Assembly: GCF_006064855.1 (NCBI RefSeq)
Contig: NZ_CP040753.1
Span: forward strand, 2,708,001-2,772,000
Direction of reading: 5' to 3'
Origin: Sulfitobacter sp. BSw21498
GTDB taxonomy: Bacteria; Pseudomonadota; Alphaproteobacteria; Rhodobacterales; Rhodobacteraceae
DNA: 64,000 bases
Under the pieces are notes generated by a model, which saw only the letters and a program-made list of their open reading frames with translations, did not search any database and was not told the origin of the DNA. Position 1 is the first letter of the stretch, and each line of letters opens with the position of its first letter. A program made the position numbers and the translations under genes. This document shows, piece after piece, positions 28,856 through 35,160 of this stretch.

Positions 28856-31800
28856 ATGGAGCAGTCGATTTTTTCCTTTATTTGGAAATACTCCCGTCGG
28901 GAACAGTTGGTTTTGCTTGTCCTGACGCTGATTACCTTCCCCTTCCTCTATGTCACACTCGAACTGCCCAAGCGTATCATCAACGACGCAATCGGGGCCG
29001 AGACGGATGTGATCGACGCCTTTGGAATGTCGTTCAGTCAGGTGCAATTCCTGATGCTGCTGTGTTTTGCCTATCTGTTTGCGGTGCTGATCCACGGTCT
29101 GATGAAGATGCGTCTGAACACGATGAAAGGCGTCTTGGCTGAACGGCTTTTGCGGCGGTTCCGGTATCAGCTGATCGCCCGCATGATGCGGTTTCCACGC
29201 AGCTATTACGAAAATACCAGCCAAGGCGAACTGGTGTCGATGGTAACCTCGGAGGCGGAGCCGATGGGGGGGTTGATGGGCGATGCCGTTGCCCAACCCG
29301 TATTTCAGGCGGGGCAGATGTTGATCATCTTGCTGTTCCTCTTTTTGCAATCCCCGTGGTTCGGACTGGCAGGCGTCGCGCTGATCCCGTTGCAGGCCTA
29401 TCTGATCCCGATGTTGCAGCGGCAGATCAACCTGCTGAACAAAGACCGCATCAGAGAGGTGCGGCACCTGTCGTCGGAGATTGGCGAAACCGCGGCCGGC
29501 ATCACGGACCTGCGCACCAATGGCGGCTGGCGCTACCGTTTGGCGTTGTTCACCGACCGGCTGGGGTACTTGTTCGAGATCCGCTTTCAGATCTACCAAA
29601 AGAAATTCTTTATGAAGTTTTTGAACAACTTCATCACCCAGCTTACGCCGTTCTTTTTCTATGCTGTCGGGGGCTATCTTGCGATTAAGGGACAGATCAC
29701 CGTGGGCGCGCTGGTCGCGGCGCTGGCAGCCTACAAGGATTTGTCCAGCCCGTGGAAAGAGTTGCTAACCTACTACAACCAAACGCAGGATATGTCGCTG
29801 CGGTGGGATGTGGTCGTTGAACGGTTTGCGCCACGCGGAGAGATTGACGCAAGCCTGTTCGAGGGCGAGCCTGCCGAAATCCCCCACCTGCGCGGAGCTA
29901 TCGTGCTTGAACACGTGTCCCTGCGCACACCGGATGGTAATACGATCTTGGACGATCTCAACCTCGAGATTCCCAAGGGCGCACGGGTGGCAATCGAGAT
30001 GCCCAACCAGACCGAACGCACCGCCTTGGCAGAGCTTCTGACCCGAGAGGCGTTACCGAGCCGCGGTCGGATCACCATGGCAGGGCATAATCTTGCAGAG
30101 CTGCATCAGGCGGTGTTGGCCGCACGCATCGGCTATGCCCATTCGAACCCCTATTTGTTTCAGGGCACTGTCGGGGATAACCTGCTGATGTCGCTCAGGT
30201 CGAGCCCCAAGACCGTGCTGTGGGACCCGAAAATGACCGACCGCGCGGCGATAGAAACGCAGCGATCGGGCAACAGTCTGGACAGCACCAAAGCCGATTG
30301 GCTGGATCCGGGGCTGGCCAATTTGAACACCCGCTCCGATATTTATGACTGGTGGTATCAACTGGTCAGCGCCGTGGGCACCCAGGACGTGATGTTCCGC
30401 GCCATGGCCGTCGACCGGATGAATCCTGAGAAACACCCCGAACTTGCGGCGCGTGTCGTAGCCTTGCGTGACGAGGTGCACGAGCGGCTCAAGGAACAGG
30501 GGCTTGATAAAGTGGTGCACCGCTTTGATCCCGACCGGTTCAACCCGGCGTTGGCGCTTGGGGGTAACCTGATGTTCGCCGCGCCGATCCGCAGCATTTC
30601 GCAAGCCGGTCTCGCGTTGGAACGCAGCTTTCTGGCGATGATCATTGAACAGGGGCTTGCCGAGCAGGGGATCGCGATTTCCCAGACGCTGGTGGAAACG
30701 CTGCACCAAACCTTTGGCCGGGATGGCACAGACCACCCGCTGTTTACCGCCCTTGGCATCGAAGAAGAGCTGTACGATCAACTGGTCGACATTGCGCTGC
30801 GCCGCCGCGCCAACGGTGACGAAGCGCTAAGCGAGGATGAATTTTCGCTGCTTCTGACGGTGCCCTTTGCCTTCACCGCCGAACAGATCGGCCCTGCATT
30901 TCCCGAAACCTTTAAGGATGAAATCCTCAGGATCCGTAAAAATCAGGGGGCCGCGATGCGCGAACGGGCACGCGACCTGTTCGTACCGATTGCGTCCGAC
31001 CAATATTTGCCGCGCCTGACTGTGCTTGAAAACGCGCTGTACGGCCGGATATCTGCTGTGGCGGGTCTGCAGGCTGATCTTATCCTTGATGTGGTGTCGG
31101 ATGTGTTCAAGAAACACGGTCTGCAACAGGATGTGGCGCTGAATGTCTTTGATCTACCAGTCAGTATCGGCGGGTCGAACATATCGACGATGTTTCAAGA
31201 ACGGGCAGGGTTCAGCCGCGCAGCGATGAAGCGCCCGGATATTTTGATCCTGAACCAGTCCCTCGCGGGTCATGATGCCGAAGGTCTTTCGCGCTTGCGC
31301 AACAAGATAGGTGAACTGCTGCCCGAAACGACCCAGATTTTCATGAACACCACATTCGCCAATCCCGATGATTTTGACGTCTACATCAAAATACGCGGCG
31401 GGCGCGTTGATGGTCTGGCACAGGTCGATACGCCGAACCAGGATGACAGTATTTCCGATGATTTACGGCGCAAACTTCGGATCATCGCGCGCAACGAATT
31501 GTTCGGAAACCTCGACTCGCGCAATCAAAGGCTGCTGGCTTTTGCAGCGCAGTGGTTCTCTGTCGACAAAGGAGAGGTGATCTTTGCGCAGGACCAGCGC
31601 CCGGATGCCGTATATCTGTGTCTGGCGGGCAAGGGAGAGCTGACCTGGCGTGACCCCGAAGGCTTGGCGCATCACGTGTCGACCGTCGAAAAGGGCCGCT
31701 TGATCGGTGACCTTGCGGTCATCGTCAACGAGCCGCGGCAGATGGATTTTGTCGCGCTTGAAGACAGCCGGTTCCTGCGGATCGGGGCAGATCAGTTCCG

Positions 31801-31957
31801 ATCGGTGGTCGAAAACGACCGTGTCATTCTGCTGAGCCTCCTGCGGACGGTGTCGGGCCACCTGACCAACGCCGCCGACTTGCTTCGTGCGGCACGGGTG
31901 GATATCCCGCGCGAAGATGAACCGTTGCCCCCGCCCGTAGGAGATGACCCCACGTGA
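28856..31957 (+). CDS. ABC-exporter-like protein with fully degenerate ATPase and C-terminal cyclic-nucleotide domain
   Basis: The 1033-residue protein has an ABC-exporter membrane domain (about 15-320, helices near 17-37, 62-82, 150-180, 258-295), a nucleotide-binding-domain outline split into 345-450 and 715-852, an insert of roughly 260 residues between, and a cNMP domain (about 895-1003). The ATPase motifs are all replaced: Walker A is EMPNQTERT (381-389, Arg388 for Lys), the Q-loop Gln is lost (HSNPYLF), the LSGGQ is ISTMF (776-780), Walker B is LILNQ (Asn800, Gln801 for Asp-Glu), and the switch His region is NTT (831-833). The cNMP domain keeps GDLA...EPR (951-961). It probably does not hydrolyse ATP. 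It overlaps the CPBP protease gene by 4 bases. Confidence 0.85.
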   Translation: MEQSIFSFIWKYSRREQLVLLVLTLITFPFLYVTLELPKRIINDAIGAETDVIDAFGMSFSQVQFLMLLCFAYLFAVLIHGLMKMRLNTMKGVLAERLLRRFRYQLIARMMRFPRSYYENTSQGELVSMVTSEAEPMGGLMGDAVAQPVFQAGQMLIILLFLFLQSPWFGLAGVALIPLQAYLIPMLQRQINLLNKDRIREVRHLSSEIGETAAGITDLRTNGGWRYRLALFTDRLGYLFEIRFQIYQKKFFMKFLNNFITQLTPFFFYAVGGYLAIKGQITVGALVAALAAYKDLSSPWKELLTYYNQTQDMSLRWDVVVERFAPRGEIDASLFEGEPAEIPHLRGAIVLEHVSLRTPDGNTILDDLNLEIPKGARVAIEMPNQTERTALAELLTREALPSRGRITMAGHNLAELHQAVLAARIGYAHSNPYLFQGTVGDNLLMSLRSSPKTVLWDPKMTDRAAIETQRSGNSLDSTKADWLDPGLANLNTRSDIYDWWYQLVSAVGTQDVMFRAMAVDRMNPEKHPELAARVVALRDEVHERLKEQGLDKVVHRFDPDRFNPALALGGNLMFAAPIRSISQAGLALERSFLAMIIEQGLAEQGIAISQTLVETLHQTFGRDGTDHPLFTALGIEEELYDQLVDIALRRRANGDEALSEDEFSLLLTVPFAFTAEQIGPAFPETFKDEILRIRKNQGAAMRERARDLFVPIASDQYLPRLTVLENALYGRISAVAGLQADLILDVVSDVFKKHGLQQDVALNVFDLPVSIGGSNISTMFQERAGFSRAAMKRPDILILNQSLAGHDAEGLSRLRNKIGELLPETTQIFMNTTFANPDDFDVYIKIRGGRVDGLAQVDTPNQDDSISDDLRRKLRIIARNELFGNLDSRNQRLLAFAAQWFSVDKGEVIFAQDQRPDAVYLCLAGKGELTWRDPEGLAHHVSTVEKGRLIGDLAVIVNEPRQMDFVALEDSRFLRIGADQFRSVVENDRVILLSLLRTVSGHLTNAADLLRAARVDIPREDEPLPPPVGDDPT

Positions 31958-32844
31958 CCCGATACGCTGCCCACAAAGCCTTTATCGCGCCGGCGATTCC
32001 TTCGGCAGCACCGTGGCGTCTGATCGTCGGATTTCTGGCGGCAACCGCGATCTATCTGCTGCTGAACAACCTGATGTTCACGACGCTGTTCAAACTGATG
32101 GGCCCGCGTGCGGATGGTTTCTATGACAGTTTGTTGACGGGCCAAACGCCCATGGCGATGCTTTTGCTGCTTGGCAGTTTCGGCCTGATGACTGTCGGCG
32201 TGGCAGTGGTGGCGCGCCTGATCCACAAACGTCCCGTGCGCGGCCTGATGGGGCCGGCACATCTGGTGGCACCGCAATTCTGGTCCGTGCTCAAGATACT
32301 GGTGCTGCTGGGGGTGGTCACATATCTGCTGCCACCGTGGAACCTTGGGGCACCCTATGTGCCCAACCTTGCGCTTGGCACGTGGCTGCTGCTGCTCCCA
32401 TTTTCTCTGTTGGGGGTGCTCGTACAGGTCAGTGCCGAAGAGATCGTCTTTCGCGGATATGTACAACAGCAGCTTGCGGCACGGTTTAGCTCGCCGCTGG
32501 TGTGGATGGTGTTGCCGGCGGTGATTTTCGCGCTTGGCCACTATCTGCCTGATCAGGCCGGCGAAAATGCGCTGGTTATCGCGCTGTGGGCCGGTGTTTT
32601 TGGCATGCTGATGGCGGATCTGACTGCGCGGGCGGGGTCGTTGGGGCCCGCTATTGCCGTGCATTTTTGTAATAATGTCGCGGCCATCGTGATCACCTCT
32701 ATGCCTGATGATCTGTCGGGTCTGGCGCTGTATCTGACCCCCTTTGGAATGAACGACACCGAGGCCTTGCGCGCTTGGTTGCCCGTCGATTTCGCGCTGA
32801 TGATGGTCAGCTGGCTTGCCGCGCGGCTGGCGATCCGGCGTTGA
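31954..32844 (+). CDS. CPBP family intramembrane metalloprotease
   Basis: The 296-residue protein has about eight membrane helices and the CPBP (Abi/RCE1-like) motifs: EEIVFRGYVQQQL with the paired Glu and Arg, FALGHYLPD with the His, and VHFCNN with the His and Asn. These are the catalytic residues of RCE1-type glutamic intramembrane peptidases. In bacteria members serve in bacteriocin immunity or maturation, or as helpers of membrane proteins. The start is a GTG at 31954 with AGGAGA 7 bases upstream, overlapping the ABC-like gene as GTGA, so the two products are coupled and may act on the same membrane process (inference). Confidence 0.88.
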   Translation: MTRYAAHKAFIAPAIPSAAPWRLIVGFLAATAIYLLLNNLMFTTLFKLMGPRADGFYDSLLTGQTPMAMLLLLGSFGLMTVGVAVVARLIHKRPVRGLMGPAHLVAPQFWSVLKILVLLGVVTYLLPPWNLGAPYVPNLALGTWLLLLPFSLLGVLVQVSAEEIVFRGYVQQQLAARFSSPLVWMVLPAVIFALGHYLPDQAGENALVIALWAGVFGMLMADLTARAGSLGPAIAVHFCNNVAAIVITSMPDDLSGLALYLTPFGMNDTEALRAWLPVDFALMMVSWLAARLAIRR

Positions 32845-32902
32845 TTGCAATTTACATCGCGTCAGCTTATCTGGAAAGCGAAACTGGAAGCAAAGGTTCA
32901 CC

Positions 32903-33889
32903 ATGAACTGGATCAACAACTACGTCCGTCCCCGGATTAATTCGATCTTCTCGCGTCGCGAGACGCCGGACAATCTGTGGACGAAATGCGAAGAATGCGG
33001 CACCATGCTGTTCCACCGCGAGGTGTCGGACAACCTGAACGTCTGCACCAGCTGTGGTCACCACATGGCGATTACCCCGCGCGAACGGTTCAAAGCGTTG
33101 TTCGACGGCGGCATTTTTACCGAGGTAAAAGTCCCCGCGCCAACGCCGGACCCGTTGCATTTTCGCGATCAAAAGAAATACCCTGACCGCATGAAGGCCG
33201 CCCAAAAGCAGACGGGCGAAGCCGAGGCTATGCTGGTCGCCACCGGTGAAATCGGCCGCACGCAAATCGTTGCGGCGGGGCAGGATTTCTCGTTCATGGC
33301 CGGGTCCATGGGCATGTATGTCGGGAACGCCATCATTGCCGCCGCCGAAAAGGCGGTAAAGCTGAAATGCCCGCTAGTGCTCTTCTCCGCAGCAGGTGGC
33401 GCGCGTATGCAAGAAGGCATCCTGAGCCTGATGCAGATGCCCCGCACGACGATCGCTGTGCAGATGCTGAAAGAAGCGGGGCTGCCCTATATTGTCGTGC
33501 TGACGCACCCCACCACGGGCGGCGTCACTGCGAGCTATGCGATGTTGGGCGACGTGCAGATTGCCGAACCTAATGCGCTGATCTGCTTTGCCGGACCTCG
33601 GGTCATCGAACAGACCATCCGCGAAAAGCTGCCCGAAGGGTTCCAACGTGCCGAATATCTGCTGGATCACGGGATGCTGGACCGCGTGACGCCGCGCACA
33701 AAGATGCGCGACGAGCTGATAGATATCACGCGCATGCTGATGAAGCTGCCTCCTGCGGTACGGGGTGATCTGCCGGCACCCACCGAGGGCGGCGACCTAT
33801 CCCATGCGTTGACCCCCGCACCTGAGGCCGACACCCCAGCTGTTGCTGCGCCGACCAAGGGTACGGCTTCGAACGCCAAAGCGAAATGA
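32903..33889 (+). CDS. accD: Acetyl-CoA carboxylase carboxyltransferase beta subunit
   Basis: AccD, with AccA, moves the carboxyl group from biotin to acetyl-CoA to make malonyl-CoA. The 328-residue protein has the N-terminal four-Cys zinc ribbon (Cys29, Cys32, Cys48, Cys51), and the crotonase-like core with SFMAGSMG, GARMQEG, HPTTGGVTASYA and FAGPRVIEQTI. The C-terminal 40 residues are Pro/Ala-rich and of no clear function. The ATG at 32903 is preceded by AAGG; upstream open frame to 32816 runs into the CPBP gene and is not used. It overlaps folC by 4 bases; accD-folC is a widespread order. Confidence 0.97.
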   Translation: MNWINNYVRPRINSIFSRRETPDNLWTKCEECGTMLFHREVSDNLNVCTSCGHHMAITPRERFKALFDGGIFTEVKVPAPTPDPLHFRDQKKYPDRMKAAQKQTGEAEAMLVATGEIGRTQIVAAGQDFSFMAGSMGMYVGNAIIAAAEKAVKLKCPLVLFSAAGGARMQEGILSLMQMPRTTIAVQMLKEAGLPYIVVLTHPTTGGVTASYAMLGDVQIAEPNALICFAGPRVIEQTIREKLPEGFQRAEYLLDHGMLDRVTPRTKMRDELIDITRMLMKLPPAVRGDLPAPTEGGDLSHALTPAPEADTPAVAAPTKGTASNAKAK

Positions 33890-35160
33890 CGCAGAAGACA
33901 TCGGATGCAGTGCTGGCGCGCATGATGGCGCTGCATCCCAAGATCATCGATCTGACGCTGGATCGCATGTGGCGGTTGCTTGATGCTTTGGGTAACCCAC
34001 AGAATGATCTGCCGCCCGTCATCCACATCGCTGGGACCAACGGCAAGGGCTCTACCCAAGCAATGATCCGCGCCGGGCTTGAGGCCGATGGCCATCGCGT
34101 GCATGCGTATACTTCACCGCATCTCGCGCGTTTTCACGAACGCATTCGCCTTGCCGGAGCGCTGATTTCCGAAGCCGCGCTGACTGAACTGCTGGATGAA
34201 TGCTATGCCGCGAACAATGGCGAAAGCATTACATATTTCGAGATCACAACCTGCGCCGCACTGCTGGCGTTTGCCCGTACTCCGGCGGAGTATACCTTGC
34301 TTGAAGTCGGGCTTGGCGGGCGTCTCGATGCGACGAATGTTGTGGACCAACCTGCGTTGACAGTGATCACGCCGGTGTCCATCGATCACCAGCAGTTTCT
34401 GGGCACGACCCTGCCCGAGATCGCAGGCGAAAAAGCTGGCATCATCAAGCGGCGCGTCCCTTGCGTTGTCGGCCCTCAACAAGACGCGGCCCTCGAGGTG
34501 ATAGAGGCGCAAGCCGCCCGCCATCACGCCCCGATCCTCGCCTACGGCCAGCAGTGGCATGTCGGGCAAGAGGCCGGTCGTATGGTCTATCAGGATGACG
34601 CGGGGCTGCTTGACCTGCCCAAACCTAACCTATTGGGCGCACACCAGATTTCTAATGCGGGTGCGGCTTTGGCAGCGCTAAGGCAGTTGGGTGTCTCGGC
34701 CGAGGCCTGCGAGGCAGCCGTCACCCGTGCCGCGTGGCCTGCACGAATGCAGCGGTTGCGCGAAGGGCCATTGGTCGACAGCGCACCCAAGGCTGAATTA
34801 TGGCTGGACGGGGGGCATAATCCGGCTGCGGGCGATGCGATCGCGGCTGTCCTGGACGCACTTCCCGCGCGGCCGACGTATCTCATTTGTGGCATGTTGA
34901 ATACAAAGGACATCGGCGGCTATCTGCGCCCATTGGCGGGGCATGCAGAAAAGCTGTTTGCGGTATCCATTCCGGGAGAGGCGGCGACCCTGCCCGCAGA
35001 AGAAACCGCGCGGGCTGCAGCCGAGGCCGGATTGTCCGCACATGAAGCGCTCGGGGTGGCCGAGGCACTAGCGACGATCGTCGCGGATGTGCCTCATGCA
35101 CGGGTGCTGATTTGTGGATCGCTTTATCTGGCCGGAGCGATTTTGCGGGAAAACGGATAG
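33886..35160 (+). CDS. folC: Bifunctional dihydrofolate/folylpolyglutamate synthase
   Basis: FolC adds glutamate to dihydropteroate and to tetrahydrofolates. The 424-residue protein shows the Mur-ligase-type P-loop GTNGKGST, the folate loop SPHLARFHERI, EVGLGGRLDATNV, the omega-loop SIDHQQFLG with GEKAGIIK, and the C-domain LDGGHNP. Length is normal. The ATG overlaps the accD stop as ATGA. After the stop there is a 95-base AT-richer gap which probably carries the promoter of the next gene; no terminator is visible. Confidence 0.96.
   Translation: MTQKTSDAVLARMMALHPKIIDLTLDRMWRLLDALGNPQNDLPPVIHIAGTNGKGSTQAMIRAGLEADGHRVHAYTSPHLARFHERIRLAGALISEAALTELLDECYAANNGESITYFEITTCAALLAFARTPAEYTLLEVGLGGRLDATNVVDQPALTVITPVSIDHQQFLGTTLPEIAGEKAGIIKRRVPCVVGPQQDAALEVIEAQAARHHAPILAYGQQWHVGQEAGRMVYQDDAGLLDLPKPNLLGAHQISNAGAALAALRQLGVSAEACEAAVTRAAWPARMQRLREGPLVDSAPKAELWLDGGHNPAAGDAIAAVLDALPARPTYLICGMLNTKDIGGYLRPLAGHAEKLFAVSIPGEAATLPAEETARAAAEAGLSAHEALGVAEALATIVADVPHARVLICGSLYLAGAILRENG

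What the first reader, a model, noticed from the sequence alone, without database searches (positions are those of the whole stretch)
28856..31957. ABC-exporter homologue with every ATPase motif lost, an insert in the NBD and a cNMP domain
The membrane domain and NBD outline are clear, but Walker A (EMPNQTERT), Q-loop, signature (ISTMF), Walker B (LILNQ) and the switch His (NTT) are all changed, including the Lys, Asp and catalytic Glu. About 260 residues split the NBD, and a C-terminal cyclic-nucleotide domain keeps the GDLA...EPR phosphate-binding residues. Loss at all sites with the frame intact over 1033 codons argues for a selected non-ATPase role, such as a cNMP-gated membrane scaffold, channel or regulator, perhaps with the CPBP protease coupled to it.
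Basis: partly seen in the sequence, partly recalled or inferred. Interest (0 to 1): 0.75.

Follow-up and report, generated by a model that had tools for sequence, protein, structure and literature searches.

The report
Conserved ATPase-dead ABC exporter relative
A marine bacterium keeps, under strong selection, a membrane protein shaped like an ATP-driven export pump whose ATP-burning motifs have all changed, which suggests that the pump fold now does a job other than ATP-driven export.

Summary
ORF 28856-31957 (1033 aa, Sulfitobacter) is a type I ABC-exporter half with a predicted complete NBD fold, no intact ATPase motif, a ~270-residue NBD insert and a C-terminal CRP-like domain. It is not decaying: 86 of 86 orthologue rows lack the Walker A Lys, catalytic Glu and switch His, and dN/dS is 0.03-0.05 in the two closest pairs. 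Erosion is older than this lineage: 0 of 461 aligned relatives have all five catalytic residues checked, though 5 rows lack only one. The insert holds an extra copy of the NBD's own Q-loop/helical segment. The CRP-like domain was a separate gene: it lies directly downstream in 46 of 54 genomes with the unfused form. A CPBP intramembrane protease with intact motifs follows in 78 of 84 orthologue loci and in none of 72 unfused loci. cNMP gating is weakened: the cassette Glu is Asp in 86 of 86 rows, and the genome has no class I, class III or CYTH cyclase; a Glu-keeping paralogue goes with cyclases instead. Best reading: an ATPase-incompetent membrane sensor or scaffold partnered with CPBP. Partnership and ligand are inferred.

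The parts
28856..31957 (+). ATPase-degenerate ABC-exporter half with C-terminal CRP-like domain, 1033 aa
28856..29845 (+). type I exporter transmembrane domain, about residues 1-330; best conserved region (144 of 330 positions invariant in 68 orthologues)
   Evidence: Pfam PF00664; conservation; fold
29888..30196 (+). N-terminal half of the NBD, residues 345-447
   Evidence: Pfam PF00005 weak; VIA match to ComA NBD spans 343-854
29996..30022 (+). former Walker A, residues 381-389 (EMPNQTERT); Lys replaced by Arg388 in 86 of 86 orthologue rows
30197..31015 (+). insert within the NBD, about residues 448-720
30524..30691 (+). extra copy of the NBD Q-loop/helical-subdomain segment inside the insert, residues 557-612
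   Evidence: hhalign to residues 712-767: 96.5%, E 8.5e-10 in the unfused set and 96.5%, E 7.7e-10 in the fused set; ten shuffles of this pair at most 0.5%
30989..31156 (+). the copy of that segment that leads into the signature region, residues 712-767
   Evidence: matches canonical exporters of the same genome at 97.2% in the unfused set and 81.5% in the fused set
31016..31435 (+). C-terminal half of the NBD, residues 721-860, with former signature, Walker B and switch
31241..31258 (+). former Walker B and catalytic Glu, residues 796-801 (ILILNQ)
31451..31900 (+). CRP-like (cNMP_binding) domain, about residues 866-1015, homologous to a separate gene in unfused relatives
   Evidence: Pfam PF00027
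31706..31744 (+). phosphate-binding cassette, residues 951-963, GDLAVIVNEPRQM; Asp952 where the canonical residue is Glu, Arg961 kept
31954..32844 (+). CPBP (Rce1-like) intramembrane protease with EEIVFR, FALGH and HFCNN motifs; overlaps the ABC-like gene by 4 bases
   Evidence: Pfam PF02517 E 5.3e-17; motifs; synteny
32816..33889 (+). accD ORF (likely start near 32903); found downstream in 42 of 42 orthologue loci with at least 5 kb of downstream sequence
   Evidence: gene name recalled from sequence
33886..35160 (+). folC, next in the same run of genes; 42 of 42 loci
   Evidence: gene name recalled from sequence

Best explanation
A conserved pseudo-exporter. It has the fold of a type I ABC half-exporter and presumably dimerises, but it no longer hydrolyses ATP. 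Shown: every catalytic motif is changed and stays changed under purifying selection; the NBD fold is predicted to be complete; the CRP-like domain is a separate neighbour gene in unfused relatives; a CPBP protease gene follows in nearly all orthologue loci examined. Inferred: the NBD pair, its enlarged helical insert and the CRP-like domain act as a cytoplasmic sensing or gating unit that moves the membrane domain, and this controls, positions or feeds the CPBP intramembrane protease. The effector is probably not a cyclic nucleotide made in the cell; another phosphate ligand such as ppGpp, or ATP bound without hydrolysis, are candidates. The unfused relatives' setting, a glycosyltransferase cluster in other Alphaproteobacteria, suggests that the family began as a regulated exporter or flippase of a glycan or glycolipid.
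Against: No biochemical data. ATP binding without hydrolysis is not excluded (Arg388 invariant, Thr or Ser at 389 in 62 of 86 rows). Five of 461 relatives, none in the orthologue clade, lack only one of the five residues (L143 and L190, which are one genome; L203; P0185; P0205), so some distant members may still hydrolyse ATP. Constraint is weaker in more distant pairs: among the 14 lowest-dS pairs listed dN/dS reaches 0.262 overall and 0.47 in NBD parts. The CPBP link is gene order only, and accD-folC are equally constant neighbours, so operon position could be incidental. CPBP is beside 0 of 72 unfused loci, so it is not part of the older setting. No dimer or complex was modelled.
Confidence: 0.42

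Rival explanations
1. It is still a transporter or flippase: the substrate is moved without ATP hydrolysis (facilitated or gradient-driven), or with a non-canonical nucleotide cycle in which Arg388 and other residues stand in for the usual ones.
For: The transmembrane domain is the best conserved part (144 of 330 positions invariant against 32 of 243 in the NBD). Unfused relatives lie in a glycosyltransferase cluster (GT28-like and GT4-like neighbours in 19 of 24 wide loci), as expected for a glycan or glycolipid exporter. Arg388 is invariant.
Against: Signature, both Walker B acids and the switch His are lost as well, and lost positions vary (position 801: Q, K, R, N, H, T in 86 rows). No glycosyltransferase cluster was seen beside the window gene: its run of neighbours is CPBP, accD and folC.
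Confidence: 0.27
2. Half of a heterodimer with an intact ABC exporter half encoded elsewhere, as in transporters with one degenerate site.
For: Degenerate sites are common in heterodimeric exporters (PMC7756269, passages read). The genome encodes other half-exporters with intact motifs.
Against: Walker motifs and signature are all dead here, so with an intact partner each composite site would still lack one side (inference from NBD dimer architecture). Of 42 orthologue loci with at least 5 kb on both sides, an ORF with Walker A and LSGG[QE] occurs in 2, over 3 kb away and on the other strand.
Confidence: 0.07
3. A cyclic-nucleotide-gated channel, scaffold or regulator.
For: cNMP_binding domain well over the Pfam cut-off; Arg961 in 152 of 152 fused rows; a Glu-keeping paralogue lies within 3 kb of a class III cyclase in 8 of 35 loci.
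Against: Asp952 instead of Glu in 86 of 86 rows. No class III, class I or CYTH cyclase in the 99.99% complete genome. In 36 same-genus genomes the Asp type is present in 9 of 9 without a class III cyclase, while the Glu-type paralogue is in 23 of 27 with and 1 of 9 without (types assigned by identity class). Cyclase classes II, V and VI, and imported cAMP, were not tested.
Confidence: 0.12
4. An ATP sensor: ATP binds the degenerate NBD pair without hydrolysis and sets the state of the membrane domain.
For: NBD fold complete; Arg388 invariant, and Thr or Ser at 389 in 62 of 86 rows.
Against: The glycine loop of Walker A is lost (Gly387>Glu in 85 of 86) and positions 382-386 vary, which leaves little of a phosphate loop.
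Confidence: 0.09
5. A decaying gene that happens to be open.
For: All motifs changed.
Against: dN/dS 0.027 and 0.051 in the two closest pairs, with NBD and insert similarly constrained; orthologues in 30 of 36 same-genus genomes, 29 full length and one cut off by a contig end.
Confidence: 0.01

Closest known systems
Type I ABC exporters of the MsbA / PCAT1 / TmrAB / TAP kind
   Different: No canonical Walker A, Walker B, signature, Q-loop or switch residue; ~270-residue NBD insert; C-terminal CRP-like domain
Heterodimeric exporters with one degenerate site (TM287/288, TAP, TmrAB, MRP1, CFTR)
   Same: Tolerated loss of catalytic residues in an ABC exporter
   Different: There one of two sites is degenerate (PMC7756269 passages; listing); here one chain has lost all motifs and no partner gene is beside it
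HetC, a peptidase ABC exporter with a cNMP domain
   Same: ABC exporter with a CRP-like ligand domain, which in HetC binds ppGpp (PMC10986499, abstract and passages)
   Different: HetC has the domain N-terminally, has a C39 peptidase, and needs its ATPase residue; here no C39 domain and no ATPase residues
NCBIfam NF041647, ABC transporter permease fused to a CPBP protease
   Same: ABC membrane part linked to a CPBP protease
   Different: The CPBP neighbour matches it at only 33.5 bits against a cut-off of 435, and here the protease is a separate gene beside a different ABC type

Membership tests
Type I ABC exporter | Exporter membrane domain and NBD fold | tested here: met
Type I ABC exporter | Walker A GxxGxGK[ST] | tested here: not met
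   EMPNQTERT; Lys>Arg in 86 of 86 orthologue rows; 8 of 9 other ABC_membrane proteins of the same genome have it
Type I ABC exporter | Walker B Asp with catalytic Glu | tested here: not met
   Asn800-Gln801; Glu absent in 86 of 86
Type I ABC exporter | Signature LSGGQ | tested here: not met
   ISTMF
Type I ABC exporter | Switch His and Q-loop Gln | tested here: not met
   Thr832 and Ser430
Type I ABC exporter | ATP-driven transport | not testable with these tools
   needs biochemistry
Cyclic-nucleotide-binding domain (CRP-like) | Domain profile | tested here: met
   PF00027 55.2 bits against a cut-off of 27.5
Cyclic-nucleotide-binding domain (CRP-like) | Cassette Glu and Arg that bind the cyclic nucleotide (motif recalled) | tested here: not met
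   Asp952 instead of Glu in 86 of 86; Arg961 kept in 86 of 86
Cyclic-nucleotide-binding domain (CRP-like) | A source of cyclic nucleotide in the genome | tested here: inconclusive
   PF00211, PF01295 and PF01928: none in own genome; other cyclase classes and uptake not tested
Peptidase ABC exporter with cNMP domain (HetC, NHLM) | C39 peptidase domain | tested here: not met
   only ABC_membrane, ABC_tran and cNMP_binding found by Pfam up to E 1
CPBP intramembrane protease (neighbour) | EExxxR, FxxxH and HxxxN motifs (recalled) | tested here: met
   EEIVFR 162, FALGH 192, HFCNN 237
ABC-derived ion channel | Conductance | not testable with these tools
   needs electrophysiology

The most novel reading that the evidence does not exclude
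A widespread alphaproteobacterial family of ABC-exporter-fold proteins has largely given up ATP hydrolysis and works as ligand-controlled membrane machines. A CRP-like subunit (first a separate gene, then fused) replaces the ATPase as the input, a duplicated helical segment enlarges the NBD, and in the roseobacter group one branch was rewired to an intramembrane protease and away from cyclic nucleotides while a sister branch stayed with the cyclases. (Probability set at 0.25, down from 0.3 in my draft, because one search shows that a few distant members lack only one catalytic residue.)
Probability: 0.25. Interest if true: 0.85.

Novelty: new variant of a known kind. Interest (0 to 1): 0.68.

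Why it matters
ABC exporters are defined by ATP hydrolysis. A large bacterial family that keeps the fold while the catalytic residues erode in one chain would be a natural test of what NBDs do besides hydrolysis, and gives a clean setting (Asp-type against Glu-type paralogues, with and without cyclases) to learn how a CRP-like domain can drive an exporter fold. The frequent pairing with an intramembrane protease in marine roseobacters makes a partnership directly testable.

Tried and rejected
Pseudogene: rejected by conservation and dN/dS.

Foreign insert domain: not needed for the matched copy (residues 557-612), which matches the protein's own NBD segment. Against a full triplication: the first unit matches the others in the unfused set (81.8% and 43.3%) but hardly in the fused set (8.0% and 11.1%), and the second unit of the fused set matches canonical exporters at only 10.2% (64.5% in the unfused set). 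The rest of the insert (about 613-711) has no assigned origin. A separate prediction of the insert was not obtained, so its fold was not searched alone.

Acid swap: unfused relatives have Asp or Glu where Walker A should have Ser or Thr (48 of 54) and mostly lack the Walker B Asp (6 of 54 have it). A compensatory exchange could not be tested: only 3 independent pairs on starred branches.

An intact-motif member was looked for and not found among 461 aligned sequences, but five rows have four of five residues and 69 have three. The 240 proteins among the 461 are the capped best 120 of each of two searches, so they lean towards the two queries.

Literature: searches gave no paper; some searches listed papers (12, 2, 6 and 5 shown) on other systems, judged by title and start of abstract. 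Two papers were read in passages. Only this open-licence library was searched. Ligand candidates other than ppGpp were not pursued.

Caveats on counts: locus sets contain duplicates of one organism (86 orthologue rows thin to 68 under 90% identity; the 84 loci and 72 unfused loci also hold repeats). The Fisher tests ignore relatedness; their sets were typed from the listings, the Asp and Glu types were assigned by identity class and checked by residue only in fetched rows, and G005 and G027, with partial or broken paralogues, were counted as lacking the Glu type. Cyclases beside loci were found with a profile grown from three cyclases of these loci; the Glu group of 35 includes six loci of other families, and 1 of 21 unfused loci also has a cyclase within 3 kb. 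The tree (quick method) used 36 of 91 own-family representatives; L174, L176, L197 and L212 were dropped beforehand as partial or odd. In one search ten fused loci (L172, L173, L179-L183, L214-L216) were excluded by hand from the unfused set. G038 counts as lacking the downstream CRP-like gene by the gap rule although one was aligned from it (L039). The glycosyltransferase counts include cross-hits: only 10 of 24 loci have two distinct GT4 best ORFs and 14 two distinct GT28 best ORFs. dS near 0.9 is close to saturation, so dN/dS values are approximate.

Full report

Motif loss. In 86 aligned orthologue rows above 57% identity: Walker Lys388 is Arg in 86, Gly387 is Glu in 85, catalytic Glu801 is absent in 86, switch His832 is absent in 86. 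By contrast 8 of the 9 other ABC_membrane proteins of the genome have an intact Walker A; the ninth is an NBD-less paralogue. Outside the own family's fused clade, 54 unfused rows are partly eroded: Lys 30, Arg 22; Ser or Thr after the Lys in none; Walker B Asp in 6; catalytic Glu in 32; signature Gln in 49; switch His in 21. Over 461 aligned sequences none has Lys, Ser/Thr, Asp, Glu and His together, but five have four of the five and 69 have three, so a few distant members may still work as ATPases. On a 74-row tree each trait needs several changes (Lys 9, Glu 9, His 8 at least). Erosion therefore looks old and repeated; the counts cannot tell loss from gain.

Selection. For L001-L002 (92% identical) dN/dS is 0.051 overall, 0.031 in the membrane domain, 0.063 and 0.053 in the two NBD parts, 0.050 in the insert and 0.067 in the CRP-like domain; for L014-L016 it is 0.027 overall. 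Over the 14 lowest-dS pairs listed (of 353 computed) it runs from 0.027 to 0.262 overall and up to 0.47 in NBD parts, still well under 1. Arg388 is one of 32 invariant positions among 243 NBD positions in 68 thinned orthologues, while 801 varies (entropy rank 186 of 243).

The insert. Profile comparison of three segments of the unfused relatives shows that residues 557-612 resemble residues 712-767 (96.5%, E 8.5e-10) and that the first unit resembles the second (81.8%) and third (43.3%); 30 column shuffles gave at most 1.7% and 3 reversals at most 0.9%. In the fused set the second and third still match at 96.5%, while the first matches them at only 8.0% and 11.1%. Against the Q-loop-to-signature segment of six canonical exporters of the same genome, the units match at 96.0%, 64.5% and 97.2% in the unfused set, but the second and third at 10.2% and 81.5% in the fused set. 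The insert thus contains at least one extra copy of the NBD's own helical segment; the rest of it (about 613-711) is unexplained.

The CRP-like domain. In unfused relatives a separate gene for this domain lies directly downstream on the same strand in 62 of 71 loci, which is 46 of 54 distinct genomes. It is fused in 146 own-family rows and in six loci of other families. The own-family fused proteins form one clade on the membrane-domain tree, and fused against unfused needs two changes. Fusion of a neighbour gene is the simplest account.

Is it cAMP-gated? The cassette Glu is Asp in 86 of 86 window-type rows, while Arg961 is kept in 152 of 152 fused rows; the 12 separate proteins that I aligned read GE at this site. 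The own genome, 99.99% complete, has no class III cyclase, no class I cyclase and no CYTH protein. Among 36 same-genus genomes the Glu-type paralogue is in 23 of 27 with a class III cyclase and 1 of 9 without (p = 1.3e-4), while the Asp type is in 26 of 27 and 9 of 9 (cyclase listing). Within 3 kb a cyclase is found in 8 of 35 Glu-type loci, 0 of 42 orthologue loci, 0 of 13 other Asp-type loci and 1 of 21 unfused loci. These tests ignore relatedness. The reading is that the Glu type works with cyclases and the window type does not. HetC shows that a cNMP domain on an exporter can bind ppGpp instead (PMC10986499, abstract and passages).

Neighbours. The CPBP protease gene follows in 78 of 84 orthologue loci by the strict rule (same strand, gap -60 to 300); a CPBP hit is present in 83 of 84, with an exact 4-base overlap in 40, and in 0 of 72 unfused loci. 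accD and folC are downstream in 42 of 42 loci with at least 5 kb there, ilvD upstream in 23 of 42. The CPBP motifs are intact. In unfused relatives the gene instead sits beside glycosyltransferases of the GT28 and GT4 kinds, a histidine phosphatase, a protein that resembles polysaccharide deacetylases by eye only (no family hit) and a methyltransferase: GT28-like and GT4-like neighbours are in 19 of 24 wide loci, the phosphatase in 18. Two same-genus relatives of the 51-54% group (L042, L044) keep this cluster. The older job was therefore probably tied to a glycan or glycolipid.

Spread. Relatives at E <= 1e-60 were found in 102 of 288 Alphaproteobacteria genomes and 24 of 120 genomes of the own family; at E <= 1e-50 in 28 of 299 of the phylum, 27 of them in the same class, some by partial matches only. 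A window-type orthologue is in 30 of 36 same-genus genomes, one of them cut off by a contig end.

Conclusion. That it does not hydrolyse ATP is a strong inference. A sensor or scaffold partnered with CPBP is my best guess, at 0.42. A transporter without hydrolysis is the main rival, at 0.27.

Noticed in passing
L040:5921-7339 (own genome G000:C1:1738061-1739005): A paralogue of the membrane domain with no NBD at all (472 aa), about 70-78% identical in seven of nine other fetched loci and 42-49% in two; a cupredoxin-like gene is beside it in 9 of the 10 loci and a multicopper-oxidase-like gene in 6 (names by eye).
   Followed up: partly
L184:474-10720: Gene cluster found in many Alphaproteobacteria loci: GT28-like and GT4-like glycosyltransferases, histidine phosphatase, deacetylase-like protein, degenerate ABC protein, CRP-like protein and methyltransferase; no paper on it.
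   Followed up: partly
L033, L034, L043, L113, L115, L117, L119, L204: Glu-type relatives of the window protein within 3 kb of a class III cyclase gene: a likely truly cyclic-nucleotide-linked sister system.
   Followed up: partly
L037-L039, L126-L155: In most unfused relatives Walker A has Asp or Glu in place of Ser/Thr while Walker B has lost its Asp: a possible exchange of the metal ligand, too few independent changes to test.
   Followed up: partly
L143:1495-4143, L203:6941-10252, P0185, P0205: Members nearest to canonical motifs, each lacking one of the five residues checked: useful comparison proteins that may still be ATPases.
   Followed up: no
L041:4336-5707: The Glu-type paralogue appears broken into separate frames in one same-genus genome (G027).
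   Followed up: no
L089, L090, L091, L093, L098: 53-55% identical forms in metagenome bins labelled Gammaproteobacteria (Granulosicoccus, Oceanospirillaceae): transfer or mis-binning.
   Followed up: no
G005:C42:1140-4082 and G395:C16:464-3439 (L174): Members whose membrane domain and first NBD half are 57-58% identical to the window protein but whose rest is only 30-41% identical, so the two parts differ greatly in divergence.
   Followed up: no
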